Assembly: GCA_036365515.1 (NCBI GenBank)
Contig: CM070877.1
Span: 111,554,011 to 111,618,010, forward strand
DNA length: 64,000 nucleotides
Reading direction: 5' to 3'
DNA from: Torymus aiolomorphi
Taxonomy: Eukaryota; Arthropoda; Insecta; Hymenoptera; Torymidae
A model generated the notes under the pieces. That model searched no databases, was not told the DNA's origin, and saw only the letters and a program-made list of their open reading frames with translations. Below are positions 5,018 through 58,779 of the stretch, piece after piece. The first letter of the stretch is position 1, and every line of letters starts with the position of its first letter. The position numbers and the translations under genes were made by a program.

Positions 5018-7792
5018 ATTACTAAACTCTTCCACCCTCTCTTCTCCCTCACTCTCTCCCTCCGTACCAAAAACTTTAATGAGAGCTTAAATATTTTTTC
5101 AAAACAATCAACACGTTCTTTAAAAAACTAATTTTTTAAATATATTCTATCCACACCATTTGTCTATAGTCCTTTTATTTATTCTGATCTCATATATTCA
5201 ATAACCACTCTTTACAAATGGTAAGAATTTTTTTCATGACTGTACCAATAATAATATTGTTAATATAAAACTTTCTACGAAAGTATAAAATAAGGCAATT
5301 ATAGACGTTTTTTCTGTATAATGTATAAAATAATAATATTTATGTTTTTTTAAAAGAAATCAAATAAATACCAGTGAAAAAATCTTTTATTTCTTTGAGT
5401 CATTGTATGCTGAACAAATTATATGTAAGTAAGTACATTCAAATTGTTCATTGCAAATCAAATAAATGAAAGTTGTGAAATCAATTATCGATAGTCAAGT
5501 AATGCAAACGACTCTCGGAAACAACTGTATGACTATTCTCAGAAATGTACTAAAATTTGTTCATCCTTCTATACAAATTAAACACAAGAAAGTACTGAAA
5601 TCAATTTATTGTAGTCAAGTACCCATAAGTTAACTTGACTGAATAATACAACTTTTCGTAACTACTTAAAAATATTCAGTCAGCGGGCATAAAGTACTAC
5701 TTAACGCCTAACAGGCGTAATAGCTCCCATACTCTTATCAAACTTTATAGAACCTACGCACTTTACGCCCGTGTGGGCGAAAATTATTTTAATTATATAA
5801 CTACTATGCCTTCTTTTTATTTCTAAACTTCATAAGAATTTTATCAGATATTTACGAAAAGTCAAAGCCTATATAAAAAAATTACATAGTTACCACCACA
5901 TCTCCATTTTTTATTGATCTTTCTCAATTTTGAAATTTCTATAATATTACGCATCTTGGGAGGACAATAGAAGTCTATAGAGCTGCTCTAGCAGGGGTGG
6001 TCCTCCAATCTCCCATACATACTTGGCGGACCCGACGGTTTCCAGTTTACTGGTGGGCTTTGTAAATGTAGAATACTAAATTTTTACATAAATTCATTAA
6101 CAATGTTTATACCTATAAGCCCATTATAAATAATTACATTGGCTCTAATTTTTAATTGATACCGTTTAAATATAATATCCCTACATGTGCAGAATCTCAT
6201 GATTTACTTTCATTACCGAAAATATTTTTCCTTGTGTCCGTCTTTTTTAAACGGGAATGGGATAAAAAATGCATATAAATTTATTGTCTACTCAAAAGTG
6301 CTTTAGGTTTTATTAACCATTTTGTAAGCTACCTATTTTTTATTCTTTTCCGTCGTGTAAATATCATATGAGATCTCATATGAGATATCATATGTGTGAT
6401 GTCATCTGCAATTTTACATATTATGAGATCTCAAATGAGATCTGATGCCCGATATTCTCTATGAGATCTGATGTCCGATATTCCCAAATGAGATCTGATG
6501 TCCAATATTCTCATATGAGATCTCATATGATATTTTCATGCGGGTTTGCACTTTCTATTCAAAAACAGAGTAATAAATTCAATACTGAGCCCTACTTAAT
6601 ATGTAGAAGCAACCCATTTATCATTTTATCTGATCTTTAAATATATGAATATTTATATGAAAATGACCATGTCTAGACCTTAAACTGCAAACCGTCGGGT
6701 CCGCCAAGTATGTAAGGGAGATTGGAGGACCACCCCTGCTAGAGCAGCTCTATAGACTTCTATTGTCCTCCCAAGATGCGTAATATTATAGAAATTTCAA
6801 AATTGAGAAAGATCAATGAAAAATGGAGATGTGGTGGTAACTATGTAATTTTTTTATATAGGCTTTGACTTTTCGTAAATATCTGATAAAATTCTTATGA
6901 ATTTTAGAAATAAAAAGAAGGCATAGTAGTTATATAATTAAAATAATTTTCGCCCACACGGGCGTAAAGTGCGTAGGTTCTATAAAGTTTGGTAGGAGTA
7001 TGGGAGCTATTACGCCTGTTAGGCGTTAAGTAGTACTTTATGCCCGCTGACTGAATATTTTTAAGTAGTTACGAAAAGTTGTATTATTCAGTCAAGTTAA
7101 CGTATGGGTACTTCACTACAATAAATTGATTTCAGTACTTTCTTGTGTTTAATTTGTATAGAAGGATGAAAAAATTTTAGTACATTTCTGAGAATAGTCA
7201 TACAGTTGTTTCCGAGAGTTGCTTGCATTACTTGACTATCGATAATTGATTTCACAACTTTCATTTGTTTGATTTGCAATGAACAATTTGAATGTACTTA
7301 CTTACATATAATTTGTTCAGCATACAATGACTCAAAGAAATAAAAGACTTTTTCACTGGTATTTATTTGATTTCTTTTAAAAAAACATAAATATTATTAT
7401 TTTATAGATTATACAGAAAAAACGTCTATACTTGCCTTATTTTATACTTTCGTAGAAAGTTTTATATTAACAATATTATTATTGGTACAGTCATGAAAAA
7501 AATTATTACCCTTTGCAGAGTTCTTATTGAATAAATGAGATTCGAATAAATAAAAGTTATTTGTACAGTCATGAAAAAAATTCTTACCATTTGTAGAGAG
7601 TGGTTATTGAATATATGAGATCAGAATAAATAAAAGGACTATAGACAAATGATGTGGATAGAATATACTTAAAAAATTAGTTTTTTAAAGAACGTGTTGA
7701 TTGTTTTGAAAAGATATTTAAGCTCTCATTAAAGTTTTTGGTACAGAGGGAGAGAGTGAGGGGGAAGAGAGGGTGGGAGAGTTTAGTAAATA
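5018..7792. mobile_element. 2.8 kb palindromic (fold-back) element
   Basis: The left arm (about 5018-6045) recurs inverted at about 6693-7792. Both outer ends carry TTACTAAACTC followed by a pyrimidine-rich tract (CCCTCTCTTC). Inner arm ends carry the block with TGCTAGAGCAGCTCTATAG, mirrored near 5970-6000 and 6735-6760. The right arm is longer because a roughly 70-bp segment near 7495-7640 is duplicated. A central spacer of about 630 bp separates the arms. No frame above about 60 residues looks coding. The high arm similarity suggests a young or homogenised fold-back element. I could not settle a target duplication. Confidence 0.75.
6361..6540. repeat. Array of palindromic ATGAGATCT-type repeats in the spacer
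   Basis: Several copies of AATGAGATCTGATGTCCGAT and shorter CATATGAGATCTCATATGA palindromes occur in tandem in the centre of the 2.8 kb palindrome. AGATCT recurs at about 20-40 bp spacing. Confidence 0.7.
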
Positions 7793-9480
7793 ATGTTTGT
7801 TAAGTACAAACTATGTAGAATAGTAACCAAACTTATTCTTGCCTATAAGTTTTTACTTTTGTAAAATAATTTTTTAAAGAGATTTCACAACTTTTTAAGA
7901 GTAAAACTACATTGTAAATAATGTCTGTTAAGTATAAAACTACACTTTAATTGATTTCACAACTTTTTGGGTTTGATTTTCAGTATCCGCGTGAAAGAAA
8001 TTTATTTCGACTTTAGAACGCAAACATTTATTATTTATTCGTAGAATTCCTTTTCATAAAATAAAACGTAAATAATTTTTTAGGATATTGTATAGGTTTC
8101 GGAAAATAATTCTTATGGTTTACGAAAAAATTCTTATCGTTTGTAAAAGTTTTTGTAAAGTGATTGTAAAGGTTTTGGAAAAGAATTTCTCGTTGCTTGC
8201 AAAAGTTTGTAAAGGATTGTAGAAGTTTTGTAAAATAATTTTTTTAATTGATTTTTTAAAAGATATAGAAATGGACCATTTTTTGAGATATTTTGTAGAG
8301 AAAATATAATAATGAATAATTTACAGATAGAAAATACTTTAAAAAATAGTTTTTAAAAGTGTTTATTATAATTGTTTCAAAAAAATATATAAGCTTTCAG
8401 TCAAGTTCTTTGTAGAGAGTTGGACAGTTGTTGAGAGCAAGATTGTTTGGATAAAAACATTAAACTTTTATTAGTATTTCGATAGAGAATTTAAAGTTGT
8501 TAAAAACGATAACAATAATATATTTTTTCTTTGTAGCTATCGCAAGGAATAAAAGAAAAAAGTACAAGTTCTCAGAATTACAATTCAAATCTCTATATCA
8601 TCTGATTCTCTTACTTTTATAAAACTTGAAGCTCAAAGTTGGCTGAGAAGTTGAGTTCTCATGTCAACTGCCATTTCCATAGCAGCAGGCGGTACAAAGT
8701 TTTTTAAAAACTATTCTTTCGCATCTATTTCTCTGAAATCACCTAATCCTCTAGCCTTTACAAAATGCGAAGCTCAAAGTTTGCGAAGTTAACTACCCTT
8801 GCGTAACAGAACCTGATACTAAGTTTTTTTACAAAACACTCTTATGCATCCATTTGCTTTTGTTTTTTTGACAAATTATTATTACATTATTAAATTTGTG
8901 CTAAAATTTACCTTTAGCCTTTTATTGCACATTCTAAAGCTGGAACTCATTTCATTATTTTGATATCCACATATTTCTTTTTCATAATATTTTATCAAAG
9001 ACTTGCAAGGGTACTAGATCTAATAATCATACTATTGCATCACAATCAGCTAGCAAATTAAAATGTTGGTTGCAGATTCAAAAAGTAGCCATTACAGTAA
9101 TTTATATTATGGTTTCATGTACTGTATATTCACAGAACAAATGGCTCCTCTGAATCATTTGGTGCCCCTCACCATAAGCCAATCATTAATTACATTATTT
9201 TCAACACTTGGATTCGTTGAAGTTTTCACTAGAAACCACTTGAATTCATAATCTATCAGACGCATCTTGCAAAACTAAAAACAAAAGTTTAGGAACTAAA
9301 AATCATTGGGAAAAAAAAGCTTTCTCGATATTCTTTTATAGTAGAAAGTATAAAACAGCTTAATTTAATAACTCATGATTACCGCACACATCTTGTAAAA
9401 TTAAAAACAATCAGTTTATGAACTATAATTACTGATAATAAAAGCTTTCTTAACATTCTTGTATACTTTTTCAAATAATT
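7793..9480. other. AT-rich stretch, no gene seen
   Basis: Short local repeats occur (a TAAATAATGTYTGTTAAGTA string at about 7787 and 7915, and a run of TTGTAAAAGTTTT-like words at 8100-8240). No coding, RNA or element end could be supported. Confidence 0.5.
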
Positions 9481-13927: not shown

Positions 13928-14336
13928 GTATATAAAAAAATACTGACATGTTGTATGTAAGGTTAGATCGATCAGATACGGGTATCTATATATATATAGA
14001 TATACAAGCGTAAGATAGACGACAACCGGAAGTGTTGTAAGAGCTGCAAACCGGACGCCGGAATAAGGAGAAGAAAAGTATAAATCGCACATAAAAAATT
14101 CAGCTCTCTATATCTTCTGAACGAGATAATCTTTTTAAATAAAATGTTTTGATTTGAGTAGAGCAATGAAATGGCTTTCGATTAAGAAGGATATGTTATA
14201 TAGTAAAAACTAACGCAATATACGTAAAAGCGCATTGAATTTTTCGTAGACCCATTTCAATGTATATGTAGCACGGGTCACTCCTTTAGGCTTCTTCTAT
14301 ACTTGCCTTCGGAGCGCTCCCGCCCTATTGAAAAAA

Positions 14337-14452
14337 ATCATGTGACTAATCATATGATTAATCCAGTGATTAATCACATGATTAATCATATGATAAATCA
14401 TGTGATCAATCCTGTGATTAATCATGTGGTTAATCATGTGATTGATCACATG
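14337..14452. repeat. Subterminal array of palindromic ATCATGTGATTA units, left arm
   Basis: About nine tandem copies of a 12-15 bp palindrome-like unit (ATCATGTGATTA / ATCATATGATTA) directly inside the left terminus. A mirror array is at 22460-22647. Multiple closely spaced identical sites at both ends look like transposase or DNA-binding-protein sites, which is inference. Confidence 0.75.
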
Positions 14453-15016
14453 AATTTTTCCAGAATCCAGGAATATGCTCTGCTGAATTTATAACTTAAT
14501 TTATTTATTATCTAGCAGTTTACCACTGCTATATTATAAATGAAAAAAAATAGTTAAATGAAACATTTGCAATATAATATAATTATTTGTATATTACAGT
14601 TATTTAGATAATTAATTCAATTGAAGATATAGACAACATTATTATATTACAATTATAATGTTCCGACATAACTGAAGAATAGGACAAAATAGGAACTTCT
14701 AAATATATTCTGCCCTAATGAAAAGATGGGATATTTGGGTTATTGGGTATAGATGAGCGATTGATATACGATAAATGGGCCCTATGGGTTTTCCTTGCGG
14801 GTCCCATATGACTGATATAAAACTAGTTAACATTTTTTTTTGGATTTCAAACATTTTATTCGAATAATAATCAATATTACTTCTTATACTACTTTGATAA
14901 AAGTATATTTTTATTATAAATTAAGGCTACAACTGTAAATAAACAATAAAGACACGTAACATACCTGTATAAGGGAATAAGATTATTATAAATGATATTG
15001 TTATTAATGTAGAGAA

Positions 15017-15253
15017 ATGATGTTTAAGGAGCCTCGTGCTCGCGCTACTCGACTCCGACCCGTGGTAGCAAATTCACACGAAGCCGGAGCCGAGCGCGCC
15101 CACGTGTACTCGATTTTGGCAGCTACCATGAACAGTTGCGACGACGTCGGCGACAGCGCGAGGAGGCCACTACTTGGCGATGCTTTTTCTATTAAAAAAA
15201 CAGAGAAGATATTTTACATAAAGTCAGCAGCTCAAAATTTTAGAATCGTTTAA
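15017..15253 (+). other. GC-rich patch with 78-residue frame, left arm (mirrored)
   Basis: An abrupt GC-rich patch in AT-rich DNA carries a frame starting MMFKEPRARATR. The mirror copy at 21651-21896 (minus) encodes almost the same peptide, starting MMFNEPRARATR. Conservation is expected for recently homogenised arms, so it is not evidence of coding. No domain recognised. It could be a promoter-like CpG patch. Confidence 0.35.
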
Positions 15254-16617
15254 GCTTTGTGAGTTAACTAATATTTTTTATTCAACAAAATTTTTTCTGA
15301 TTCTTTATTAAAAACCATTTAAAATGAGCCCTGGAACGATATTAGCAAACATTTAAAATGATCCATTTGGAAAGTCTCAGATTCGCTACTTATTAGTATA
15401 CCTTCATCTGAAAAAAAGAAAATAATAAGTACAGCAGAATATTTTTGATTGGACAAAATTTTTACTGAATCTTTATTAAAGTCCCTTTCAAATAAGCCCT
15501 GATCGGTGTTCGCAAACACACTTGAAAAGAATTGTATATTTTTTTAATCTCAGTAGAAACCAAAAATTGGAATTTTTGACAACCTGCTGGATTTGAGATC
15601 TTAATATTATTCATATATCTTATGTCATGCATCTTGTCGCTGAATTTTCTCAAAGCATGAAAAATATATTAAACATCTATTTTCAACAATATTTTCAACA
15701 GGCATTTATACTTTCCTAAATTTTCAATGGGAGATGCTTACACTGTTAATAAACTGTATTTGCAAACTTCATATCTATTCGAAACTGAATTTTATAAGTA
15801 ATCTATTATTATGTGAACCAAAGCTAAAATTAAAATACTATAAAAAAGTTGCAATCAAATTAGTTGAAAGACAATAAAATATGGTGTTCTTATTAAGGCT
15901 TCGTTTCATAAATTTCATAAACTATGTAATCTACAAACTTGTAACTCATTAAGATCCATAATACAATTATTTAATTTTCAACTTACGCTGAATAATTTAT
16001 GAAATTTCGTGAAGCAAAGGCTTAATAAGAAAACCATATTTTATTGAAAATTATTGGTTATGGAGTATACGTCTGTGCATTTGAATTTGCAATTGCTAAA
16101 TTGTCTTTCGACTAACTTGATTGCAACTTTTTTATAGTAATTTATTTTTAGCTTTGGTACACATAATAATAGATTACTTATTAAATTCAGTTTCAAATAG
16201 ATATGAAGTTTACAAAAAGAGTGTATTAACAGTGTAAGCGTCTCACATTGAAAACTTAGGAAAGTATAAGCCTGTTGAAAATATTGTTGAAAATAGACGT
16301 TTAATATATTTTTAATGCTTTGAGAAAATTCAGTGACAAGATCCATGACATGAGATACATGAATAATATTAAAATCTGAAATCCATTGTGTTGTCGAAAA
16401 TATAAATTATTGCTTTCTACTGACATTTAAAAAATATACAATTCTTCTCAAGTGGGTTAGCGAATATCGATCAGGGCTTATTTGAAAGGATCTTTAATAA
16501 AGATTCAGTAAAAATTTTGTAGAATCAAAAATATTCTGCTGTACTTATTATTTTCTTTTTTTCAGATGTAGGTATACTAATAAAGAAAATATAACCACAT
16601 ATACAGATAAAAAGCAA

Positions 16618-17290
16618 ATTTTTTCCCAATCAATATTTTATACAAAAAATTTCAGGATTGAGTAAAGAAAATGAGAATAGTTGAGTTTACACAAAAAATT
16701 GCAAAGAATAACAGCTTTCCACATTAGAGAGGTTAGAAGCGAGAAAGGGCTTACCGAATCTATGCTTTGCAGGTAACTTCGCTGTCTTGTTGTCTCAAAT
16801 GGGTGATCACCTCCAAGTGATGGACGCGACGAAAGAATCAAAACCCACCAGGACACCGTACTACAACCGCCGCTATCATCGCTGGGAACGCCACGGACGA
16901 GACACGCGCACGGCAGCCTCGGTAGGCATTTCTTATACAAACAATTCAATCAGCTGTTGGTGCTACCGTGCCTCGTGCGTGCTTTCGAATTTGCGATAGA
17001 ATCGTCTCGTCCGTGGCGTTCCCAGCGATGACAGCGACGGTTGTAGTACGGTGTCCTGGTAGGTTTTGATTCTTTCGTCGCGTCTATCACTTGGAGGTGA
17101 TCACCCATTTGAGACAACAAGACAGCGAAGTCACCTACATGCATAGATTCGGTAAGCCCTTTCTCGCTTCTAACCCCTCTAATGTGGAAAGTTGTTATTC
17201 TTTGCAATTTTTTGTGAAAACTCAAGTATTCTCATTTTTTTTACTCAATCCTGAAATTTTTTGTATAAAATATTGATTGAGAAAAAATTT
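16618..17290. repeat. Nested inner palindrome with GC-rich core
   Basis: Arms 16618-16912 and about 17005-17290 are inverse copies separated by about 95 bp. The arm includes GGGTGATCACCTCCAAGTGAT and CATCGCTGGGAACGCCACGG. A diverged single copy of the same arm lies at about 31915-32110. It sits inside the 8.3 kb element. Confidence 0.75.
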
Positions 17291-17553
17291 GCTTTTAATT
17301 TGTATATGTGGTTATATTTTCTTTATGATCCATTTGGAAAGTCTCAGATTCACTATACTTATTAGTATATACCTTCATCTGAAAAAAAGAAAATCATAAG
17401 TACAGCAGAATATTTTTGATTCGACAATATTTTTACTGAATCTTTATTAAAGTGCCTTTCAAATAAGCCCTGATCGATGTTCTCAAACCCACTTGAAAAG
17501 AATTGTATATTTTTTAAATGTCAGTAGAAACCAATAATTGGTATTTCCGACAA

Positions 17554-20500
17554 CCTGCTGGATTTGAGATCTTAATATTATTCATATATCTCATGTCATG
17601 GATCTTGTAGTTGATTTTTTCAAAGAATGAAAAATATATTAAATATTTATTTTCAACAATATTTTTGACTGGCTTATAAGTAATAATATTTTTATTTACT
17701 GTCCTAAATTTTCAATAGGAGATGCTTAACTCTATTTGTAATCTTCATATCTATTCGAAACAATTTTATAAGTAATCTATATTATCGTGTGCCAAAGCTA
17801 AAAGTAAATGACTATAAAAAAGTTGCAATAAAGTAGTTGAAAGACAATTTAGCAATTGCAAATTCAAATGCACAGACGTATACTCCATAACCAATAATTT
17901 TCATATAAAATATGGTTTTCTTATTAAGCCTCCGCTTCATGAAATTTCATAAACTATTCAGTGTTAAGTTGAAAATTAAATAATTGTATTATGAATATTA
18001 ATGAGTTATAAGTTTGTAGATTACATAGTTTATGAAATTCATGAAACGAAGCCTTAATAAGAACACCATATTTTATTTGAAAATTATTGAGTAAGTAGTA
18101 TTTGTATGCGCAATGGAATATACAATTGTTAATTGTCTTTCAACTAATTTGATTGCAACTTTTTTATAGTATTTTACTTTTAGCTTTGGTACACATAATA
18201 ATAGATTACTTATAAAATTCAGTTTCGAATAGGTATGAAGTTAACAAATAGAGTGTATTAACAGTGTAAGCGTCTCCCATTGAAAATTTAGGAAAGTATA
18301 AATGCCTGTTGAAAATATTGTTGAAAATAGATGTTTAATATATTTTTCATGCTTTGAGAAAATTCAGCGACAAGATCCATGGCATAAGATATATGAATAA
18401 TATTAAGATCTCAAATCCAGCAGGTTGTCAAAAATACCAATAATTGGTTTCTACTGACATTAAAAAAATATACAATTCTTTTCAAGTGGGTTTGCGAACA
18501 TCGATCAGGGCTTTTTCGACAACCTGCTGGATTTGAGATCTTAATATTATTCATATATCTCATGTCATGGATCTTGTAGCTGATTTTTTCAAAGCATGAA
18601 AAATATATTAAATATTTAATTTCAACAATATTTTTGACTGGCTTATAAGTAATAATATTTTTATTTACTGTCCTAAATTTTCAATAGGAGATACTTAACT
18701 TTATTTGTAATCTTCATATCTATTCGAAACAATTTTATAAGTAATCTATATTATCGTGTGCCAAAGCTAAAAGTAAATGACAATAAAAAAGTTGCAATAA
18801 AGTAGTTGAAAGACAATTTAGCAATTGGAAATTCAAATGCACAGACGTATACTCTATAACCAATAATTTTCAAATAAAATATTGTTTTCTTATTAAGCCT
18901 CCGCTTCATGAAATTTCATAAACTATTCAGTGTTAAGTTGAAAATTAAATAATTGTATTATGGATCTTAATGAGTTATAAGTTTGTAGATTACATCGTTT
19001 ATGAAATTCATGAAACGAAGCCTTAATAAGAACACCATATTTTATTTGAAAATTATTGGTTATAGAGTATACGTCTGTGCATTTGAATTTGCAATTGTTA
19101 ATTGTCTTTCAACTAATTTGATTGCAACTTTTTTATAGTATTTTACTTTTAGCTTTGGTACACATAATAATAGATTACTTATAAAATTCAGTTTCGAATA
19201 GGTATGAAGTTAACAAATAGAGTGTATTAACAGTGTAAGCGTCTCCCATTGAAAATTTAGGAAAGTATAAATGCCTGTTGAAAATATTGTTGAAAATAGA
19301 TGTTTAATATATTTTTCATGCTTTGAGAAAATTCAGCGACAAGATCCATGGCATAAGATATATGAATAATATTAAGATCTCAAATCCAGCAGGTTGTCAA
19401 AAATACCAATAATTGGTTTCTACTGACATTAAAAAAATATACAATTCTTTTCAAGTGGGTTTGCGAACATCGATCAGGGCTTTTTCGACAACCTGCTGGA
19501 TTTGAGATCTTAATATTATTCATATATCTCATGTCATGGATCTTGTAGCTGATTTTTTCAAAGCATGAAAAATATATTAAATATTTAATTTCAACAATAT
19601 ATTTGACTGGCTTATAAGTAATAATATTTTTATTTACTGTCCTAAATTTTCAATAGGAGATGCTTAACTTTATTTGTAATCTTCATATCTATTCGAAACA
19701 ATTTTATAAGTAATCTATATTATCGTGTGCCAAAGCTAAAAGTAAATGACTATAAAAAAGTTGCAATAAAGTAGTTGAAAGACAATTTAGCAATTGCAAA
19801 TTCAAATGCACAGACGTATACTCTATAACCAATAATTTTCAAATAAAATATTGTTTTCTTATTAAGCCTCCGCTTCATGAAATTTCATAAACTATTCAGT
19901 GTTAAGTTGAAAATTAAATAATTGTATTATGGATCTTAATGAGTTATAAGTTTGTAGATTACATCGTTTATGAAATTCATGAAACGAAGCCTTAATAAGA
20001 ACACCATATTTTATTTGAAAATTATTGGTTATAGAGTATACGTCTGTGCATTTGAATTTGCAATTGTTAATTGTCTTTCAACTAATTTGATTGCAACTTT
20101 TTTATAGTATTTTACTTTTAGCTTTGGTACACATAATAATAGATTACTTATAAAATTCAGTTTCGAATAGGTATGAAGTTAACAAATAGAGTGTATTACC
20201 AGTGTAAGCGTCTCCCATTGAAAATTTAGGAAAGTATAAATGCCTGTTGAAAATATTGTTGAAAATAGATGTTTAATATATTTTTCATGCTTTGAGAAAA
20301 TTCAGCGACAAGATCCATGGCATAAGATATATGAATAATATTAAGATCTCAAATCCAGCAGGTTGTCAAAAATACCAATAATTGGTTTCTACTGACATTA
20401 AAAAATATACAATTCTTTTCAAGTGGGTTTGCGAACATCGATCAGGGCTTTTTCGACAACCTGCTGGATTTGAGATCTTAATATTATTCATATATCTCAT

Positions 20501-21330
20501 GTCATGGATCTTGTAGCTGATTTTTTCAAAGCATGAAAAATATATTAAATATTTAATTTCAACAATATATTTGACTGGCTTATAAGTAATAATATTTTTA
20601 TTTACTGTCCTAAATTTTCAATAGGAGATACTTAACTTTATTTGTAATCTTCATATCTATTCGAAACAATTTTATAAGTAATCTATATTATCGTGTGCCA
20701 AAGCTAAAAGTAAATGACAATAAAAAAGTTGCAATAAAGTAGTTGAAAGACAATTTAGCAATTGGAAATTCAAATGCACAGACGTATACTCTATAACCAA
20801 TAATTTTCAAATAAAATATTGTTTTCTTATTAAGCCTCCGCTTCATGAAATTTCATAAACTATTCAGTGTTAAGTTGAAAATGAAATAATTGTATTATGG
20901 ATCTTAATGAGTTATAAGTTTGTAGATTACATAGTTTATGAAATTCATGAAACGAAGCCTTAATAAGAACACCATATTTTATTTGAAAATTATTGGTTAT
21001 AGAGTATACGTCTGTGCATTTGAATTTGCAATTGTTAATTGTCTTTCAACTAATTTGATTGCAACTTTTTTATAGTATTTTAATTTTAGCTTTGGTACAC
21101 ATAATAATAGATTACTTATAAAATTCAGTTTCGAATAGATATGAAGTTTACAAATACAGTGTATTAACAGTGTAAGCGTCTCCCATTGAAAATTTAGGAA
21201 AGTATAAATGCCTGTTGAAAATATTGTTGAAAATAGATGTTTAATATATTTTTCATGCTTTGAGAAAATTCAGCGACAAGATCCATGACATAAGATATAT
21301 GAATAATATTAAGATCTCCAATCCAGCAGG
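17554..21330 (+). repeat. Tandem array of four ~969-bp units, each self-complementary
   Basis: The anchor CCTGCTGGATTTGAGATC starts at 17554, 18523, 19492 and 20460, giving periods of 969, 969 and 968 bp. Each unit begins with a block (GATTTGAGATCTTAATATT...) whose inverse closes the unit (AATATTAAGATCTCAAATCC), and the halves mirror each other around the TTAAGTTGAAAAT region. Differences between units are few, so amplification is recent. A related, more diverged inverted pair occupies 15420-16560. Confidence 0.85.
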
Positions 21331-21650
21331 TTCTCAAAAATACCAATTATTGGTTTCTACTGAGATTAAAAAAATATACAATTCTTTTCAAGTGGGTTTG
21401 CGAACATCGATCAGGGCTTATTTGAAAGGGACTTTAATAAAGATTCAGTAAAAATTTTGTCCAATCAAAAATATTCTGCTGTACTTATTATTTTCTTTTT
21501 TTCAGATGAAGGTATACTAATAAGTAGCGAATCTGAGACTTTCCAAATGGATCATTTTAAATGTTTGCTAATATCGTTCCAGGGCTCATTTTAAATGGTT
21601 TTTAATAAAGAATCAGAAAAAATTTTGTTGAATAAAAAATATTAGTTAAC

Positions 21651-21896
21651 TCACAAAGCATAAACGATTCTAAAATTTTGAGCTGCTGACTTTATGTAAA
21701 ATATCTTCTCTGTTTTTTGAATAGAAACATCATTGCCAAGTAGTGGCCTCCTCGCACTGTCGCCGACGTCGTCGCAACTGTTCATGGTAGCTGCCAAAAT
21801 CGAGTACACGTGGGCGCGCTCGGCTCCGGCTTCGTGTGAATTTGCTACCACGGGTCGGTTTCGAGTAGCGCGAGCACGAGGCTCGTTAAACATCAT
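21651..21896 (-). other. GC-rich patch with 81-residue frame, right arm (mirror of 15017-15253)
   Basis: Inverse copy of the left-arm patch, with a few substitutions that keep the frame open. See 15017-15253. Unlikely to be a gene. Confidence 0.35.
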
Positions 21897-22459
21897 TTCT
21901 CTACATTAATAACAATATCATTTATAATAATCTTATTCCTATATACAGGTATATTACGTGTCTCTATTGTTTATTTACAGTTGTAGCCTTAATTTATAAT
22001 AAAAATATATTTTTATCAAAGTAGTATAAGAAGTAATATTGATTATTATTCGAATAAAATGTTTGTAATCCGAAAAAAAATGTTAACTAGTTTTATATCA
22101 GTCATATGGGACCCGCAAGGAAATCCATAGGGCCCATTTATCGTATATCAATTGCCCATCTATACCCAATAGCCCAAATATCCCATCTTTTCATTAGGGC
22201 AGAATATATTTAGAAGTTCTTATTTTGTCCCATTCTTCAGTTGTGTCGGAACATTATAATTGTAATAACAATAAAGTTGTCTATATCTTCAATTAAATTA
22301 ATTATCTAAATAACTGTAATATACAAATAATTATATTATATTGTAAATGTTTCATTTAACTATTATTTTTCATTTATAATATCAGTGGTAAACTGCTAGA
22401 TAATAAATAAATTAAGTTATAAATTCAGCAGAGCATATTTCTGGGTTTTGGAAAAATTC

Positions 22460-22647
22460 ATGTGATCAATCATATGATTAATCATGTGATTAATCACATG
22501 ATTTTTCCGTCGATAATATCATGTGATTAATCATATGATTGATCACATGATTAACCACATGATTAATCACATGATTGATCACATGATTTATCATATGATT
22601 AATCATGTGATTAATCACTGGATTAATCATATGATTAGTCACATGAT
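22460..22647. repeat. Subterminal array of palindromic ATCATGTGATTA units, right arm
   Basis: About fourteen copies of ATCATGTGATTA-like palindromes, more than in the left arm, with one interruption near 22505-22520. The open frame of M-I-N-H repeats at 22523-22738 is a translation of this array. Confidence 0.75.
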
Positions 22648-22669
22648 TTTTTTCAATAGGGCGCGCTCC

Positions 22670-26212: not shown

Positions 26213-26312
26213 GTCCAAAATCATGAAGCTAATGGCCAAATTTACTACCACTCCAGTGTTATTAATTAAAAGATGATTAATAAAACAACACCATTTTTTT
26301 CTTTTTATCCGT

Positions 26313-26350
26313 CGACGTTTCGGACAATTTTATTTTTGTCCCTCTTCAGG
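26313..26350 (-). ncRNA. Hammerhead-ribozyme-like motif, left terminal repeat of PLE A
   Basis: Inverse copy of the motif at 29774-29810: on minus CTGAAGAGGGAC, A/T-rich loop, GTCCGAAACGTC. Core elements CTGANGA and GAAAC flank a GGAC/GTCC stem II. The fifth core base is A where canonical hammerheads have U, so activity is uncertain. Confidence 0.5.
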
Positions 26351-26444
26351 TATCTAATATATACAACCGTAGTTAATATTATTATAAATATATAGTTAAT
26401 ATTATTAAGTGCATATCATCCAGCACTACCATCTTCACTTCACC

Positions 26445-26887: not shown

Positions 26888-27107
26888 TGACCTAAGTAGC
26901 ACTTTTTTGCACGGCGTGAAGTTAGGGCCCGAGCGCAGCGAGGCTTAGCTACCTAAGCCCGCTGTCACGCCTATCCGTGCCCTAAGTAGTCCTTTTTTGC
27001 ACCGTGAGGTTAGCGCACGAGCGTAGCGAGTGCGATAAACACGGTGCAAAAAAGTACTACTTAGGTCACGGATAGGCGTGACCTAAGTGCGGGCTTAGGT
27101 CACACAG
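26888..27107. mobile_element. GC-rich fold-back insertion inside PLE A
   Basis: The region 26952-27099 is a near-perfect palindrome: CCTAAGCCCGC...GCACCGTG on the left and its inverse on the right, with GAGCGTAGCGAG in the loop region. A further direct partial copy of the inner arm lies at 26889-26943, with GAGCGCAGCGAGG. It is far more GC-rich than the surrounding frame and breaks it, so it inserted later. No clear target duplication (TGTGAC occurs at both sides in imperfect form). Confidence 0.65.
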
Positions 27108-27110: not shown

Positions 27111-28851
27111 TATAAAAGAAATTAACAAAACAGTGTGTGACATAGAAAAGGTAGTTGGAAATGATTTGATTATATTATTTATGCAATATTACAAATGTAA
27201 ACTTATTTTTATTATGGATAAAGTTAAAATTAAATTAGATAGAAAACTCAATGGCATTTATTTCAAAAAATATAAATGTGAATTAGAAAGAGATAGATAT
27301 AGAGGAGATTCAGCGATTAATAAAGTAGGGGTCAATCTCCGAAATAACAACACACAGGTTGTCGACCCCGTGGATTCGACTTTGAAAGCAGAAAAATGGT
27401 GTGTCAATGTTTCGGATATTGAACTACCTTTTTATGTCAATGACATATTAAAGCTAGGTGAAAAGTTTAACTTTAATAATAGATTCGACGATAGACTGGC
27501 ACTAAGTTTTGTTAAGAATTTTGAAGCTTTCCTTAAAAATTATCCTGAAAATGAAAAGATCCCGAAAATAAGAGGTAGTTTTCTTAATGTTATAAAAAAA
27601 TTTTATAATAAAGAGTTATCGATTCATTCACATGTTGATAAACAATTTAAAATGGATTTAGTTAAAACTAAAGAATTTTTGAAACGAAATCAGGATATTT
27701 TAATAACGAGAGCTGATAAAGGAAATGCCACAGTGATTATTACAAAAGCATCGTATAATGAAAAAGTAGAATCGTTATTTGGTGATAACAAATATTATGA
27801 AAAAATCAAATCAAATCCTCTATCTTCGTTAGAAAGGAAAACTAATGAATTGACAAAATGGTTAAACAAAATCGATTTCATATCTAATGGAAAAAAATTA
27901 GGACCAGTTTTACAAAAATTTAACATTTCCAAAGCATATGGGTTGATTAAAATACATAAAACGGGTTTCCCAGTTCGACCCAACATCTCTACCATAAATT
28001 CACCTTCTTATTTTATTTCAAAATTTTTCGCAAAATTCTTACAAAATAACTTAAAAACTCCGTTTTCTCATATTGACAATAGTGAAAAACTAAAAGAAAA
28101 AATTGATAATATTCTAATTCCGCACGACTACGAAATTATTAGCTTTGATGTTGTCGGTTTATTCACAAATGTACCTGAATATTTGGTGTACAATGCTATA
28201 GAAAAGAGATGGCACCAATTGTATAATAAAATCAATCTGAATTTCTCTGAATTTATTAAGGTTATGAAGTTCATATTAAATAATAATTTTTTTCAGTTTA
28301 ATGAAAAATTTTATAGACAAACTTTTGGTTGTGCTATGGGAAACCCGATTAGTCCTATTTTATCTGATATTGTTATGGAGGATCTAGAATTACATTGTAT
28401 AAACAAATTGCATTCCAAGCCTTTGTTTTATTTTCGGTATGTAGATGATATTATATTATGCATACAAAAAAATGACATAGAACATACCTTAGACGTCTTT
28501 AATTTGTATGATAAAAACTTGCAGTTTACAGTAGAAAGATTAAAAAATAATAGTATTAGTTTTCTGGATTTAAAAATAAATATTAATGATCATAGACATA
28601 TTATAACGAATTGGTATAGAAAACCTACTTTCTCTGGCAGATATCTCAATTTTAATTCTCACCATCCTTTGGTGAATAAAATTGCGATTATTCATAGTTT
28701 GGTTGATCGGGCAATAAAGCTGTCGCATAAATCCTTTCACAAAAAAAATATTTTTTTCATTAAAGATGTCTTAAAATATAATAATTATCCACTAGATTTA
28801 CTTAACTTCTATATAAAAAAAAAGACTAAAAAAGATTTATTCGATGTCTAG
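27111..28851 (+). pseudogene. PLE A reverse transcriptase
   Basis: A frame of 572 residues is open from 27133. RT landmarks in order are RADKGNATVI, YGLIKIHKTGFPVRP, ISFDVVGLFTNVP (first catalytic Asp), FGCAMGNPISPILSDIVM, the YVDD box in FRYVDDIIL, then SFLDLKI and TNWYRKPTFSGRYLNF. This order matches the Penelope family and PLE B and C in this window. The frame ends at 28851 and the endonuclease continues in the next frame from 28844, where family members have one continuous protein, so a single-base change is inferred. Catalytic residues are intact. Confidence 0.85.
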
Positions 28852-29371: not shown

Positions 29372-29773
29372 AATTAGAATAACTGAGTATTGTAGACGAG
29401 CAGGTATTAGGAGCATATGACTAGTAGAGCTATATGCGGTACACTATCCATCGTATTCGCAGACGTGTTTGCCTAATACCTCTTCCCGTTCTCGAACTCT
29501 GTTAGTGGGCTGTGACCCACCTACTTACATATACTGTCTTATGTATGTACGTTCACACCCTTTATTACACACACTTATTTAAATATTAGACTATATAAAG
29601 AGAAATAATGGTTTATGTGACTATTGACGGGTGGACTGTTTTCCACGTAACACTTGGACTTTTAACATTTTGATTGTAAGTTTTGTATTCTGTTTTATTT
29701 ATTTCATGTGAAAAATATTTCTCTGTTGGAAATTATTATAATAATATTAACTACGGTTGTATATATTAGATAC

Positions 29774-29810
29774 CTGAAGAGGGACAAAAATAAAATTGTC
29801 CGAAACGTCG
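29774..29810 (+). ncRNA. Hammerhead-ribozyme-like motif, right terminal repeat of PLE A
   Basis: CTGAAGA, G, stem II GGAC/GTCC around an A/T-rich loop, then GAAACGTC. Placement in a Penelope terminal repeat matches the described PLE hammerheads. The core deviates at one position (A for U). Confidence 0.55.
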
Positions 29811-29928
29811 ATGGATAAAAAGAAAAAAATGGTGTTGTTTTATTAATCACCTTTTAATTAATAACACCGGAGTGGTAGTAAATTTGGCCATTAGCTTCAA
29901 GATTTTGGATATTAGAAGAAATCTACCA

Positions 29929-34634: not shown

Positions 34635-35985
34635 TGTTACGACCCGAGTCGGGCTCGGCGAGCAGAAAGGTGCTTCTGCAATGGTCGCCAAGTTGACCAA
34701 TCGGAATGTGGAATTCGTTTGCTCAATTAAGCGCTAAAGCGCATGGAGTTGCAGGAAAGTTGAAATAAAACTCGAACTCGAGAGAGTAAACTTTAACTTG
34801 AGGTTTATTAAATTAATTAAGTACTTTATGAACTTTAACAAACAAATAGACTTTTGACCGTGACTCTATACAATTGCAAAAATGCGTAGAATGACTGTGA
34901 CTATTTAAAGCTTCTGGGCGCAACATGCACAATGTCAGCAGAGTACCAAAAATATTGATAACGACCCAAGCTCTAGCTACTAAGCGTCTCATGTACTCGG
35001 TAGCGACTGACTCTGGCGGCTCGGGGCTCTTCTTTTATACCCCTAGCGCGGACCTCAGGCCGTTGACAAGGATCCCAGGAGAAACGCTATTGGTCGGCAG
35101 CTTCAGGTTGGTAGTGGCAGGCAGTATGGTGTAGAGGCTGTAGGGCGCCAGGTTGCCTCAGAAGCCTTCCCCCACTCCCAAGTGGGGAGAGTGGCGATGA
35201 AGGGGCCCTAGACCAGAAAACAGGGTCGAGAGCGATGAGCAGCGGGTGACGGACCGCCTCCCTCCAGTGGCGCGGGACGCCGCTAGTCTGTGATTGGCTG
35301 TTGGCGATGGCTCGGGCCGTTAGGTTGTTGCGCCACTGCGCCATAGTTCTGGGAATTGTTTGTCTCTCGTCGGGTGACCGTTGGCACTAATGGATTCTGA
35401 GAACTGTTTACGCATTCCTGGCCTGTCCGTTAATCCTTTCCTTAGCCTAATGGATTCCAAGAAGTATTTACGCATTCCTGGTTCGACCGTTGATGCATTC
35501 CTGAAACTGTCGACCTCGAAGTGGATTAAGTTTCCTCGAGCCCTTCGCTAGTTGATTCTCGGAAGCGTTCACGTCTTTTGTTTTTCCTTGAATTGTTTCT
35601 CGAGCTGCTGGCTGTCCTTGGGAATTTCTGTAACAGAGCTTCTTCACACCTGAGCGAGCTTCCCTAATTAATTATTATTACGCCTGCCGTTATTTATCAA
35701 ATCGCTAATTATTATGACGTAATTATTATTTATTTAGTTTTATTGCTAATCTCAATTTGTTCATTAGCGCATTGACCTTGATAGTTTAAGGACGCTATTA
35801 CTATTTGTAATTAGTTAATAAATTCATTATCGCTTGTTTATTATTGATTTTATTCGGGTTATTGCTAATTAATTAATTGTTATCCTAGCTCGAGATTATT
35901 ATTTAATTGGTTTTTATACTAGATTTCGGGCTATCATCGTAGAACGACCCTAAATATCAGGCTATGCGCAACGCAGTTTGTAACA
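34635..35985 (-). repeat. 3' LTR of the gypsy element
   Basis: Begins next to the polypurine tract at 35986 and ends at the GTAG duplication (34631-34634). On minus: TATA box at 35033-35039, initiator about 35008, polyadenylation signal AATAAA at 34804-34809. That implies a U3 of roughly 980 nt. Confidence 0.92.
35033..35039 (-). promoter_or_regulatory. LTR TATA box (TATAAAA)
   Basis: TATAAAA on minus is followed about 31 nt downstream by TCAGT, an arthropod initiator consensus match. The same pair occurs in the 5' LTR at 46473-46479 and about 46448, where it would drive the element's RNA. Confidence 0.7.
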
Positions 35986-35986
35986 G

Positions 35987-36000
35987 TTCCCCCCCTCTTT
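35987..36000 (-). other. Polypurine tract
   Basis: AAAGAGGGGGGGAA on minus abuts the 3' LTR, the expected site for plus-strand DNA priming. Confidence 0.8.
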
Positions 36001-36070
36001 TAAAACACGAACCCATGGTTCGGGCTTTTCACACAATGAGAAAGTTGGTACGCCTGATGGTGGGAAGGAC

Positions 36071-36219
36071 CCGATGTGTGCGGTGTATGCGTGTGTGCGT
36101 GTGCGCTGGACGAATATGTGTGTGCGTATGTTGCGTGTGCGGGTGCGTGTGTGTGTTGGATGAATGTATGTTCGTGGGTGTGTGTGTGTTGGACGAATGT
36201 GTGTTGGACAAATGTGCGT

Positions 36220-36258
<39 letters not shown>

Positions 36259-36952
36259 TTGGACGAATGGGTGCTCGTGTGTGTGTGTGTGGGTGTTGGA
36301 CGAGTGTGTGTTCGTGTGTGTGTTAGACGAATGTGTGTTGAACGAATGCGCGTTCGTGTGTGTGTGTGTGTGTGAGTTGGACGAACGTGAGTTCGTGTGT
36401 GTGTATGTGTGTACGTGTTGAACGAGTGTGTTCGTGTGTGTGTGTGTGTGTGTTAGACGAATGTGTGTTGGACGAATGTACGTTCGTGTGTGTGTGTGTG
36501 AGTATGTGTGTACGTGTTGAACGAGTGCGTGCTCGGATGTGTGCGTGGGTGTTCGATGAATGTGTGTTGGACGAATGTGCGTTCGTGTGTGTGTGTGAGT
36601 TGGACGAATGAGTGCTCGTGTGTGTGTGGATGTTGGACGAGTGTGTGTTCGTGTGTGTGTGTTAGACGAATCTGTGTTGAACGAATGTGCGTTCGTGTGT
36701 GTGGGTGTGAGTTGGACGAACGTGTGTTCGTGTGTGTGTATGTGTGTACGTGTTGGACGAGTGTGTTCGTGTGTGTGTGTGTGTGTGTGTGGGTGTTAGA
36801 CGAATGTGTGTTGGACGAATGTGCGTTCGTGTGTGTGTGTGTGAGTTGGACGAATGTGTGTTCGTGTGTGTGTATGTGTGTACGTGTTGGACGAGTGTGT
36901 TCGTGTGTGTGTGTGTGTGTGTGTGGGGGGGGGGTTAGACGAATGTGCGTTC

Positions 36953-37025
<73 letters not shown>
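36071..37025. repeat. GT-rich minisatellite with ACGAA/TTCGT motifs
   Basis: About 950 bp of GT runs are interrupted regularly by TTGGACGAATGTG and GCGTTCGTGTG words, so each unit holds an inverted ACGAA...TTCGT pair. It lies in the 3' non-coding part of the gypsy element. The V/C-repeat frames over it (36076-37050) are artefacts. Confidence 0.9.
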
Positions 37026-37149
37026 GTGGAAGAGAAGGAAGAAGCGATAAAATATTTTTATTACATTTTATTCATACACTTAGTTTTAATTTATACAATA
37101 CTTAGCTTTATGCAAAAACAAAATTAAACAAAGAAAAAGAATTGAAATT

Positions 37150-37818
37150 TTAATTTTCTGTCCTTGATATAAACACCTGCCGCCTCTTAATTTCCTCCTG
37201 GTGGAAGTGGAATACGTAAACACATGTGAGGCATGTGTCCATTCTTTTTATGGTGTGCGGGTTTCGCCCACACCGGCACTCGGGGGTTTTCAGAGCCCTG
37301 AATGCACCGACCACGTGTGTCCTCCTAAGGGTCCACCCCGACCGGGCGGACTCGTAGCAATCGAAACACCTCCAGTCACGGCCGGAGGATGCTCTGAAGT
37401 AATCGACCGTGCAGTGACCAATGGCCGCTGCACCCTGGTTACGCCGGTCGATTTTTCCCTCGAGGATCCTTTCCAGCCTCTTCAAATCCCTCTTGTGGGC
37501 GGGAATACCCATCGTCCCAGTAGGGGCCACCCCCGACGGTGGCATAGTGATGGGTTGGGTCTACATCACAAGGGTCGACCCCATTCCCAAGCGGGGCCTC
37601 CCCTTCTGGGCCGGCTCAGCCATGCCACCGGTCCCAACGCCGACCTCACCGCGGCCCTCCCGGCCGAGAGCGGCCAAGGTCTCGGCGGCCTCCAAGTCGC
37701 CGCACGTATATCCCCCCGGTAACGGCTCAGGCGCGCCACCCCCGACCTCGCTCAGGTTCACCCGCTGTTCCTCCTCCTCCTCCAACCATTCTTCCTTGAC
37801 AAGAAAGTATTCCTCCAT
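37150..37818 (-). CDS. Accessory 3' frame of the gypsy element, cysteine-rich, with one in-frame stop
   Basis: From ATG at 37818 the minus frame gives 85 residues (acidic EEWLEEEEEQ stretch), a TAG at 37561, then continues in the same frame for a further 136 residues to 37150. The second part has a basic segment KRDLKRLERILEGKIDRR and cysteine pairs RCFDC, CRCG and CLTC, which look metal-binding. The ATG is preceded by CATATTCCTTCCAG, a good splice acceptor, so it may be expressed from a spliced RNA, as 3' env genes of errantiviruses are. No transmembrane segments or env features. Codon-like, GC-rich composition differs from gag-pol. Function unknown, and the stop could be a mutation or readthrough site. 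Confidence 0.45.
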
Positions 37819-37860
37819 GACTGGAAGGAATATGGGGTTCAGAGAATTCACTGGATGCGT

Positions 37861-37861
<1 letters not shown>

Positions 37862-37893
<32 letters not shown>
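37862..37893. repeat. (GA)n microsatellite
   Basis: A short GA run just upstream (on minus) of the accessory frame, within the possible intron. Confidence 0.9.
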
Positions 37894-37899
<6 letters not shown>

Positions 37900-38039
37900 G
37901 GAGGGGGATGCATGCATTCGCGATCCGGGGAAGAACGCGCCCGAGAGAGACAGAGGAAAAGCGCATTCGTGATATGGGGAAGATGCGCGGAAAAAGAAGA
38001 AGGAAAAAGGGCGCACGCACTCGCGATTCGGGAAAAAGG

Positions 38040-38240
38040 CGCGAGGAGAGAAAGAATACGCGCACTCGCGCTTTGGAGAGGACGCGCAATAATCGAGAGA
38101 GCGGAGGAACACATGCACCCGCGATTTCGAGAAAATGGGCGAGGAGAAAGAATGCACGCACTCGCGCTTTGGAGAGGACGCGCAAGAATCGAGAGAGCGG
38201 AGGAACACATGCATCCGCGATTCCGAGAAAATGCGAAAGG
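38040..38240. repeat. 96-bp minisatellite, two full copies in a GA/GC-rich tract
   Basis: CTTTGGAGAGGACGCGCAA begins at 38071 and 38167, a 96-bp period, and related words (ACGCGCACTCGCG, GCATCCGCGATTC) continue on both sides from 37920 to 38300. All six frames stay open over it, so the 341-residue frame at 37561-38586 is not coding evidence. Confidence 0.7.
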
Positions 38241-38936
38241 AGAAAGAAAGGAAAAAGATCGAAAAAATACACGCAGAAAGGGAAAGAAACGCACTTCCGC
38301 GACATAAAAGAAAATGCGCGAGAGGAGCGAGAGAAGCCAAGAAAAGGAAAGGAAACTTGAGACAGAGGTGAGAAAGTACACGAGGAGGAGAGATCGCCGC
38401 GCAGCGCGATCCCAAGGACGGCGCATTCGCATATGTCCATGGTCGAGAAAATAGTGCAAAACTTATTGGTATTCTAAAAAGAATGCAGAAGGAAAGAAAG
38501 AAAAAGGAAAGAACCATACATGCTCGCGATCCAAAGAACCATATTGGTAAATACCTTTTTGTTGCGGGGATGATGGTGGCGGACAACCTCTCGCCACGGC
38601 GGCTGTCGGAAGAAGGACCCGCCGAAGTGGAAGGACCCGAGGGAAAGGCGCAGGCGAAGCGGGGAGCGAGGGCGCCACGCTCGAGTAATGGGCCGCGTCA
38701 TAAACTTGGTCATTGGGTTTGGACAATGTCACAGTCCATTACCATGAAAAGCTTAGGGTGTTTCCAGGGAACCTTAAAGTTTCCCTATAATATCGTAATT
38801 TCGCACTACATTTCAAACATATCCCCCGCGGTATACCATTCGAAATGCAGCGTCTGTCGCAATGTTTTCCTCTTTTTTTTTTCTTATATATTTTGAAATT
38901 TTTGGGATGAATTTTCAATACGTAAAGTTTAGATTT

Positions 38937-39360
38937 TAAGGGTGAAGTTACAATGAAACACGGGTTTAATAGTTAAGTTTTTTAAGGGTAAAAACGCGGG
39001 TTAAAGAATTAGTTTAAGGATGAGCTTATAATGAAACGCGGCCTTAACGATTAATTTTAAGGGTGAATCTACAATGAAATGCGGGTTGTAATTTAAATTT
39101 TAAGGGTGAATCTACAATAAAACACGGGTTTAATTTAAATAATTTAAATTTTTAAGGGTGAATCTACAATAAAACACGGGTTTTAATTTAAATAATTTAA
39201 ATTTTTAAGGGTGAATCTACAATAAAACACGGGTTTTAATTTAAATTTTAAGGGTGAGTCTACAATAAAACATGGATTTTAATTTAAATTTTAAGGGTGA
39301 ATCTTTTTATGAAACGCGTTTTCGCTTTTTAAATAATTCAATTTTTTAAGGGTGAAGGGA
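38937..39360. repeat. Tandem repeat of ~42-55 bp, about ten copies
   Basis: The word TTTAAGGGTGAATCTACAAT recurs about ten times with variable A/T spacers and an ACGGGTTTTAATTTAAAT tail. It is located just 3' (on minus) of the integrase frame. Confidence 0.85.
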
Positions 39361-39792
39361 GCCCCTGCCATCGCTCCCTTCCGTGAGATGCTTCCCATGG
39401 CTCGCCGGGACCCACCCTGATGCACCGCATCAGGAGTACTTCCGGTTTCCCATTTCCAGAGCGTAAAACAAGAGATTATCTTAAACATTCCTTTAAAGCG
39501 AGCCCTGGCCATCTCTCCTGTAACCCTTATTACTTTATTATTTATTAATTTGGTTACAAACAGGATACATAAATTTATGGTTAGGTCGCACGCAAAATAT
39601 AAAAATATAAACGCCGCACAGAATAGCATTATAAATATCGCGTAAAGGGGGGAGAAATGAATAAAATTAGTTAGGTCGCAAACACGCATGTTTTAATTTG
39701 TCCACATGGACTACCTTTGTTCTGTTATTCCCTAAATCTATTCTCGCGTTTCTATCGCCTATCAATTCTATGACCTTATACCGGCCCGCGTA

Positions 39793-43837: not shown

Positions 43838-43867
43838 GAGAACGTACCCGGTGGAACGAGTGGAATT

Positions 43868-44254
43868 CTAAATAGAGACTTGAATTAAAGTTTTAGTTCT
43901 AGCCGGTAAGTAAAAGGTGTCATGATTGATAAAAGGAATCATTTCACGCTCATTTCCGTAAAGAAGTTCATTATCTTGAAACGATAGGACTGCCTTCTGC
44001 TCTTTTAAAAATTCCACTCCGAGAATTCCATCAGCCTTTATGGGAAAATCGTTGGGCACGACGTTTAACCTACAAGGAACCCCTCCAAGATTTACCCTTA
44101 TATATCCTTCGGTTAGAACAAGACCCTCACTAATGCCTGCTAATCTATACAAATTATCTTTCTGTATTAGCAGGCCATGTTTTACAATATTCAGTTCTGA
44201 TCCCGTATCAATGAGAAATCGCGGCCTATCTTTAATTAAGTCATGACTTTGCAT
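43868..44254 (-). CDS. pol: gypsy aspartic protease
   Basis: RFLIDTGSELNIV carries the retropepsin DTG at residues 16-18, and DGILGVEFL is the conserved second motif of retroviral-type proteases. The frame extends upstream of the ATG and overlaps the end of gag in the -1 frame, so expression by -1 frameshifting from gag is likely (inference). It ends with a TAG directly before the RT frame. Confidence 0.8.
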   Translation of the reverse strand: MQSHDLIKDRPRFLIDTGSELNIVKHGLLIQKDNLYRLAGISEGLVLTEGYIRVNLGGVPCRLNVVPNDFPIKADGILGVEFLKEQKAVLSFQDNELLYGNEREMIPFINHDTFYLPARTKTLIQVSI

Positions 44255-44271
44255 CGCGACAATTGGAGATT

Positions 44272-45513: not shown

Positions 45514-45676
45514 TTTGAATTATTCCTACTCGCTCGCTCGCTCGAGCAGGGTACTTAGCTCTAATTTTCCGCAGGCGACCTCGGTGCTTCAGGCAGGAGC
45601 TGGTGACTCGTAACGGGTGCTGGTGCTGATGACTCGTGACTGATGTTGAAGACTCGTAGCTGACGTCGTTGATTTA

Positions 45677-46036
45677 TTAATGACCCTGGCAATGCTTGCA
45701 ATGAGGGGGAGTGAACAGGCAGTGGAGAGATCGCAGATGACGTCCCGAACGGAGTTGGTACTGATGTCCAGGTGTGGATGTTCGGTGCCTAGCAGCCGGC
45801 CCTGGAGTTACCTCGTCGGTGTCGCTCCTGTACCCCAAATCAGGACTGCTTTCTCGTGTATTCGAAGGAGCTACGTAACCGTCGATTGGCTGAGGATGTC
45901 TTTCTTGTGGCTGCCGTGGACTCAGATACCCAATCAGATGCTCCGGCATTCGCCCAAGTTCTAAGGGAAACCACGGCTTAAAACCTTGGACGGAACAAAA
46001 TTCTTGAACTCCTCCGGAAATGTCTTTTTCCTTCAC
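45677..46036 (-). CDS. Small leader frame between 5' LTR and gag
   Basis: 119 residues starting MKEKDISGGVQE, beginning 16 nt inside the primer binding site and ending before gag in another frame. It is Pro/Arg/Ser-rich and ends with cysteine pairs HCLFTPPHCKHC. No recognised domain. It may be a real pre-gag ORF or chance in a GC-rich leader. Confidence 0.3.
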   Translation of the reverse strand: MKEKDISGGVQEFCSVQGFKPWFPLELGRMPEHLIGYLSPRQPQERHPQPIDGYVAPSNTRESSPDLGYRSDTDEVTPGPAARHRTSTPGHQYQLRSGRHLRSLHCLFTPPHCKHCQGH

Positions 46037-46051
46037 AACTCCTTGAGCAAT

Positions 46052-46067
46052 CCCACCGCTGTCACCA
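46052..46067 (-). other. Primer binding site
   Basis: TGGTGACAGCGGTGGG on minus lies about 6 nt inside the 5' LTR. It starts with TGG, complementary to a tRNA CCA end. The pattern resembles the tRNA-Leu type sites of some gypsy elements, but the tRNA identity is a guess. Confidence 0.65.
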
Positions 46068-46073
46068 AAAATT

Positions 46074-47424: not shown

Positions 47425-47428
47425 GTAG

Positions 47429-48005: not shown

Positions 48006-48007
48006 TC

Positions 48008-48505: not shown

Positions 48506-48578
48506 CTTTAGGGTCTAATATTGCAGCTTTCTTCATGTTTCTACGTCCAAAAAATTTTTAACCGAATTTCCGATAAAA

Positions 48579-56610: not shown

Positions 56611-56615
56611 GTGAC

Positions 56616-58191: not shown

Positions 58192-58196
58192 GTGAC

Positions 58197-58723: not shown

Positions 58724-58779
58724 GGTTATATAATCTTACTAGTACAGTTATTCCAGAATCAGTATTTAACGTTTTAAAA

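What the first reader, a model, noticed from the sequence alone, without database searches (positions are those of the whole stretch)
14315..22669. 8.3 kb palindromic element with nested palindromes and CGCTCC duplication
Perfectly matched outer ends, a 6-bp target duplication and multi-kilobase mirror symmetry with inner palindromes and tandem units, but no enzyme gene. A 6-bp duplication is known for Polinton/Maverick, and 7-9 bp for Galileo or fold-back types. The architecture does not fit any I can name. Such a structure would extrude or form hairpin RNA, a possible siRNA source.
Basis: partly seen in the sequence, partly recalled or inferred. Interest (0 to 1): 0.85.

Follow-up and report, generated by a model that had tools for sequence, protein, structure and literature searches.

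The report
Non-coding foldback transposon with inner array
This is an 8.3-kb piece of DNA, probably from an insect genome, whose two halves mirror each other and in which no enzyme gene was recognised; it looks like a 'foldback' transposon, an established kind of mobile DNA, in which an inner segment has multiplied into a small satellite-like array.

Summary
The element runs 14321-22663 (8,343 bp), with 91 bp of perfect terminal inverted repeat and CGCTCC immediately outside each end. Best reading: a non-autonomous foldback transposon. From each end inward it has 12-bp near-palindromic sub-repeats (8 and 14 CAYRTG cores), about 1.1 kb of outer TIR, then palindromic units U1-U5 with a central 742-bp palindrome B between U1 and U2. 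U2-U5 meet at three identical joints absent from the parent sequence, so one abnormal join followed by unequal exchange would explain the 969-bp units. The mirror arms differ by 1-5% (outer) to about 15% (inner), which argues against a copied-contig artefact. No transposase reaches a Pfam cut-off in 14321-20329 or in 10 of 40 listed window ORFs. Long, internally repeated TIRs are known from Galileo, Tetris and Tm1. The 6-bp duplication with CGCCC ends matches none of the 6-bp superfamilies I checked (Dada, IS3EU/GingerRoot; Polinton ends by recall), but this rests on one copy. The host-genome search did not complete (13 attempts), so other copies, donor transposase and empty site are untested; small RNAs could not be tested. 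Interest moderate-low.

The parts
14315..14320 (.). target-site duplication CGCTCC, left copy (second part of a 10-bp palindrome GGAGCGCTCC)
14321..15389 (+). left terminal inverted repeat, outer domain; first 91 bp perfectly mirrored at the right end
14336..14452 (.). subterminal array of 12-bp near-palindromic repeats (AATCAYRTGATT), 8 CAYRTG cores, all in one 12-bp phase
15030..15190 (.). G+C-rich segment in left TIR (52% in 15001-15200, 22-31% in the neighbouring 200-bp windows) with a short ORF that contains MNSCDDVGDSARRPLL; origin unknown, captured host DNA is a guess
   Evidence: no Pfam match
15390..16583 (.). palindromic unit U1 (left half matches U5 right half 97.7%; right half divergent, 87.0-90.2% to all others); boundaries set by me
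16584..17325 (.). central palindrome B (middle domain); arms 94-96% alike, unmatched centre of about 100 bp; G+C-rich core with mirrored ORFs 16712-16999(+) and 16950-17231(-), no homologue found
17326..18512 (.). palindromic unit U2
18513..19481 (.). palindromic unit U3 (969 bp)
19482..20449 (.). palindromic unit U4 (968 bp)
20450..21523 (.). palindromic unit U5
21524..22663 (-). right terminal inverted repeat, outer domain
22458..22648 (.). right subterminal 12-bp repeat array, 14 CAYRTG cores in two phase blocks (break near 22507-22518); the right arm is 73 bp longer here than the left
22664..22669 (.). target-site duplication CGCTCC, right copy

Best explanation
A non-autonomous foldback-type (class II, TIR order) transposon. 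Shown: 91-bp perfect ends, 6-bp flanking duplication, 12-bp near-palindromic sub-repeats at both ends, 2.6-2.8-kb mirrored arms, no recognised transposase, and three identical inner joints. Inferred: a transposase made elsewhere in the genome binds the 12-bp repeats (their symmetry suggests as a dimer), cuts both ends and inserts with a 6-bp stagger. Inside the element, an illegitimate join at a T-rich stretch fused two truncated palindromic units; unequal exchange then spread that joint into the 969-bp array, while gene conversion or recent hairpin-templated repair kept the outer arms alike.
For: Ends and duplication; terminus only at this element in the window. Sub-repeats: 8 CAYRTG cores on the left, all in one 12-bp phase, and 14 on the right with one phase break. 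Arm identity by 150-bp windows is 94.7-99.3% over 14321-15970, 94.2% at 15971, falls to 87.5% and 84.6% at 16121 and 16271, is 93.3% at 16421, 94.0% and 95.3% in B, and 57.8% of 83 columns at the centre; in all 2444 of 2599 aligned columns are identical, on a right arm that I collapsed by leaving out 17971-20891. Half-unit matrix: U2L-U5L 97.1-99.5%, U2R-U5R 95.1-99.8%, L against R of U2-U5 84.6-89.6%, U1L against U5R 97.7%. The joint GATCAGGGCTTTTTCGACAACC is identical at U2/U3, U3/U4 and U4/U5, while the sequences it would derive from, near 17530 and 21410, differ. Published precedents, read as passages: Tetris, Galileo with TIR tandem repeats and proposed multiple binding sites, Tm1.
Against: Only one copy is in view; mobility is inferred from one hexamer duplication and the anatomy. 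The foldback-type elements whose passages I read have 7-10 bp duplications, not 6. No transposase partner is identified. It is not shown that the whole element moved with its array; the array may have grown after insertion.
Confidence: 0.82

Rival explanations
1. A non-autonomous Polinton/Maverick or other known 6-bp-duplication element (Dada, IS3EU/GingerRoot) reduced to its TIRs.
For: 6-bp duplication; Polinton, IS3EU/GingerRoot and Dada (6-7 bp) make such duplications.
Against: IS3EU ends are TA..TA and GingerRoot mostly TA..TA, occasionally TG..CA; in Dada no TIRs were found and it inserts in small-RNA genes, while no Rfam family reached its cut-off anywhere in the window; Polinton ends AG..TC (recalled). 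Here the ends are CGCCC..GGGCG.
Confidence: 0.08
2. A host palindrome or satellite array formed by template switching and unequal exchange, never a transposon; the hexamer duplication is chance.
For: Inner units behave like a satellite array.
Against: Identical hexamer exactly at both ends of a 91-bp perfect inverted repeat, about 0.0006 by chance; phased sub-repeats at both ends.
Confidence: 0.06
3. Assembly artefact: arms or units duplicated by mis-assembly.
For: No reads available; near-identical tandem units (U3R/U4R 99.8%) are places where copy number can be wrong.
Against: Arms differ by 155 substitutions (central loop included) and six indels of 5 bp or more over 2599 compared columns; L and R halves of U2-U5 differ by 10-15%.
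Confidence: 0.04

Closest known systems
Tetris (foldback, Drosophila virilis; PMC4079207; part 1 of 6 and found passages read)
   Same: Non-autonomous, long TIRs with a flanking domain, tandem repeats inside the TIRs that seeded satellite arrays, variable middle without coding capacity, transposase not found
   Different: 8-10 bp duplications; about 220-bp repeats rather than 969-bp palindromic units; sequences not compared
Galileo (P superfamily, foldback-like; PMC3573991; found passages read)
   Same: Long TIRs with a variable number of tandem repeats, copies made of TIRs only, sub-repeats discussed as secondary transposase binding sites
   Different: 7-bp duplications; TIRs of about 0.3-1.2 kb; transposase-coding copies known; sequences not compared
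Tm1 (Mutator/Foldback, root-knot nematodes; PMC3169594; found passages read)
   Same: Composite TIRs of variable length, MITE-like members
   Different: mostly 9-bp duplications (8-10 bp in 45 of 53, as the paper states); members with a putative transposase known
MULEs with multiple tandem TIRs (plants; PMC3310237; abstract read)
   Same: Duplicated TIR sequence within an element
   Different: Mutator superfamily, plants; usual Mutator duplications are longer than 6 bp (recalled)

Membership tests
Foldback-type element (structural class) | very long TIRs filling most of the element | tested here: met
Foldback-type element (structural class) | TIRs internally repetitive (tandem sub-repeats) | tested here: met
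Foldback-type element (structural class) | dispersed copies with variable arms | not tested
   no second copy in the 64-kb window; own-genome search did not answer in 13 tries
Polinton/Maverick | 6-bp duplication | tested here: met
   Polinton length
Polinton/Maverick | AG..TC ends (recalled) | tested here: not met
   CGCCC..GGGCG
Polinton/Maverick | integrase and protein-primed polymerase genes (would be absent in a non-autonomous copy) | tested here: not met
   six-frame Pfam of 14321-20329
IS3EU/GingerRoot | TA..TA (or TG..CA) ends | tested here: not met
Dada | no TIR; insertion in a small-RNA gene | tested here: not met
Galileo / P superfamily | 7-bp (Galileo) or 8-bp (P, recalled) duplication | tested here: not met
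   only length 6 matches; Galileo length
Mutator/FB | 8-10 bp duplication | tested here: not met
   lengths
any DDE superfamily | related transposase for the same ends | not tested

The most novel reading that the evidence does not exclude
The element is the non-autonomous face of an undescribed 6-bp-duplicating cut-and-paste transposon lineage with CGCCC ends and arrays of dimeric 12-bp transposase sites, whose nested palindromes are read into long hairpin RNA that feeds host small-RNA silencing.
Probability: 0.1. Interest if true: 0.65.

Novelty: new member of a known kind. Interest (0 to 1): 0.33.

Why it matters
It adds a case where a foldback transposon holds a young satellite-like array whose founding joint can be read directly, which bears on how satellite DNA starts. 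If further copies confirm a 6-bp duplication with CGCCC ends, the transposase behind it may belong to no superfamily that I could check.

Tried and rejected
Terminus in viral contigs: 12 stretches share the 16-mer. I printed each with 30 bases before and 90 bases from the match start: one (L011) goes on to match all 19 bases, none continues into the 12-bp repeats, so I take them as chance. 22-mer in prokaryote genome contigs: 0. 2.67-kb left arm against phage records: no match. ORF in B: 2 candidates, none significant; no PDB match. Pfam on six ORFs: nothing at cut-off. In the read-through frames, 16 matches at E up to 1 were listed, all below their cut-offs: the best is Nm-ACP (E 2.5e-5, 24.9 of 27.5 bits needed); RAG2_PHD, the one with a recombination-related name, appears twice (E 0.13 and 0.002, at most 18.6 of 27 bits). 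I take all as low-complexity noise. The B-arm ORF copies, from the shared GGT codon on, differ at 5 sites, two silent and three changing the residue (counted by eye), so there is no sign of coding constraint. Flanks: no match in the window spans the insertion point apart from the locus itself. Capture of host gene fragments in the G+C-rich parts was considered; without a homologue it stays a guess.

Paper searches: no title or abstract start in the listings names a foldback with a 6-bp duplication, but the listings were partial (20 of 27, 7 of 7, 1 of 1, 15 of 29, 6 of 13), and two listed papers that hold the words '6-bp TSD' or '6-bp target site duplication' (PMC3627910, PMC4440537) were not opened. 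No claim of absence from print is made.

Full report
Observation. The element lies at 14321-22663, 8,343 bp, with 91 bp of perfect terminal inverted repeat and CGCTCC immediately outside each end; among flank lengths 4-12 only 6 matches. The left copy of the duplication is the second part of a 10-bp palindrome, GGAGCGCTCC. The terminus occurs only at this element within the window. All 8,343 bases fall in minus-strand self-matches at E<=1e-20, against 2458, 498, 0, 0, 1032 and 2791 in six equal control segments; the higher controls hold other inverted repeats of this window.

Anatomy. From outside in: a 12-bp repeat array (AATCAYRTGATT; each unit nearly its own reverse complement), with 8 CAYRTG cores on the left in one phase and 14 on the right with one phase break, the right arm 73 bp longer here; in all about 1.07 kb (left) and 1.14 kb (right) of outer TIR with one G+C-rich segment; then palindromic units. 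U1 is followed by a central palindrome B, then U2, U3, U4, U5 and the right TIR; unit boundaries were set by me. With 17971-20891 set aside (my choice), the element is one large palindrome about the centre of B, with arms of 2,633 and 2,789 bp. The arms agree at 2444 of 2599 compared columns: 94.7-99.3% per 150-bp window in the outer 1.65 kb, down to 84.6% further in, 94-95% in B, and 57.8% of 83 columns at the unmatched centre.

How the array arose. The ten half-units fall into classes: L halves of U2-U5 97.1-99.5% alike, R halves of U2-U5 95.1-99.8%, L against R of these 84.6-89.6%, U1L closest to U5R (97.7%), U1R apart from all (87.0-90.2%). The three inner joints are identical and differ from the sequences they would derive from. 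One illegitimate join followed by unequal exchange explains this; the L/R palindrome is then older than the array. That the outer arms are more alike than the L and R halves of a unit suggests conversion between the outer arms or their recent copying. These steps are inference.

Coding capacity. No ORF of 120 aa or more starting at ATG/GTG/TTG lies inside; stop to stop the longest inside is 121 aa. Pfam gives nothing at cut-off for six ORFs or in six frames of 14321-20329. The B ORF has no homologue in the protein collection or PDB. Of the 40 window ORFs listed, the 10 that were scanned gave reverse transcriptase, RNase H or integrase zinc-binding domains in 6 and nothing in 4; no DNA transposase was seen, and 30 were not scanned.

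Host. The reverse transcriptase at 27133-28851 (Penelope-like is my own label) has 278 matches, of which the best 120 were listed; the named ones come from ants (Temnothorax, Vollenhovia, Ooceraea), the wasp Microplitis, beetles, a fly and a butterfly. The window is probably from an insect, perhaps a hymenopteran; this is inference.

Comparison. The architecture is that of foldback elements. Tetris has long TIRs with about 220-bp tandem repeats, a coding-free middle and 8-10 bp duplications, and provided the building blocks of satellite arrays. Galileo has TIR tandem repeats, 7-bp duplications, and sub-repeats discussed as transposase binding sites. Tm1 has composite TIRs and mostly 9-bp duplications. 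A 6-bp duplication is shared with Polinton, IS3EU/GingerRoot and Dada, but the ends or the target rule fit none of them (Polinton ends recalled). The superfamily is therefore unassigned, on one copy.

Limits. The own-genome search was sent 13 times and not answered, so copy number, donor, empty site and family termini are untested. Nothing here bears on small RNAs.

Noticed in passing
5019-7793: A second foldback-like element: arms 97% alike (aligned blocks of 878 and 233 columns, with an 80-bp tandem duplication in the right arm), ends TTACTAAACTCTYCCACCC, and a middle at 6361-6535 with ATATCATATGAG-type repeats. No match to the main element at E<=1e-5; no clear target duplication found by eye.
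   Followed up: partly
47475-48506: Two adjacent imperfect self-palindromes of about 0.5 kb, 68% and 80%.
   Followed up: no
26951-27100: A 157-column palindrome (80%) just upstream of a reverse transcriptase ORF; a 174-column inverted pair 26214-26387 / 29736-29909 (98%) brackets that ORF region.
   Followed up: no
52851-61103: Retroelement copies (Penelope-like by my own label) 98% alike in opposite orientation, making a large inverted repeat; reverse transcriptase by Pfam is just under the cut-off (26.9 and 28.3 of 29.6 bits).
   Followed up: partly
34637-47426: Gypsy-like (own label) LTR retroelement ORFs with integrase zinc-binding, reverse transcriptase and RNase H domains at 39793-43837; a direct pair 34637-35987 / 46076-47426 (98%) may be its LTRs.
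   Followed up: partly
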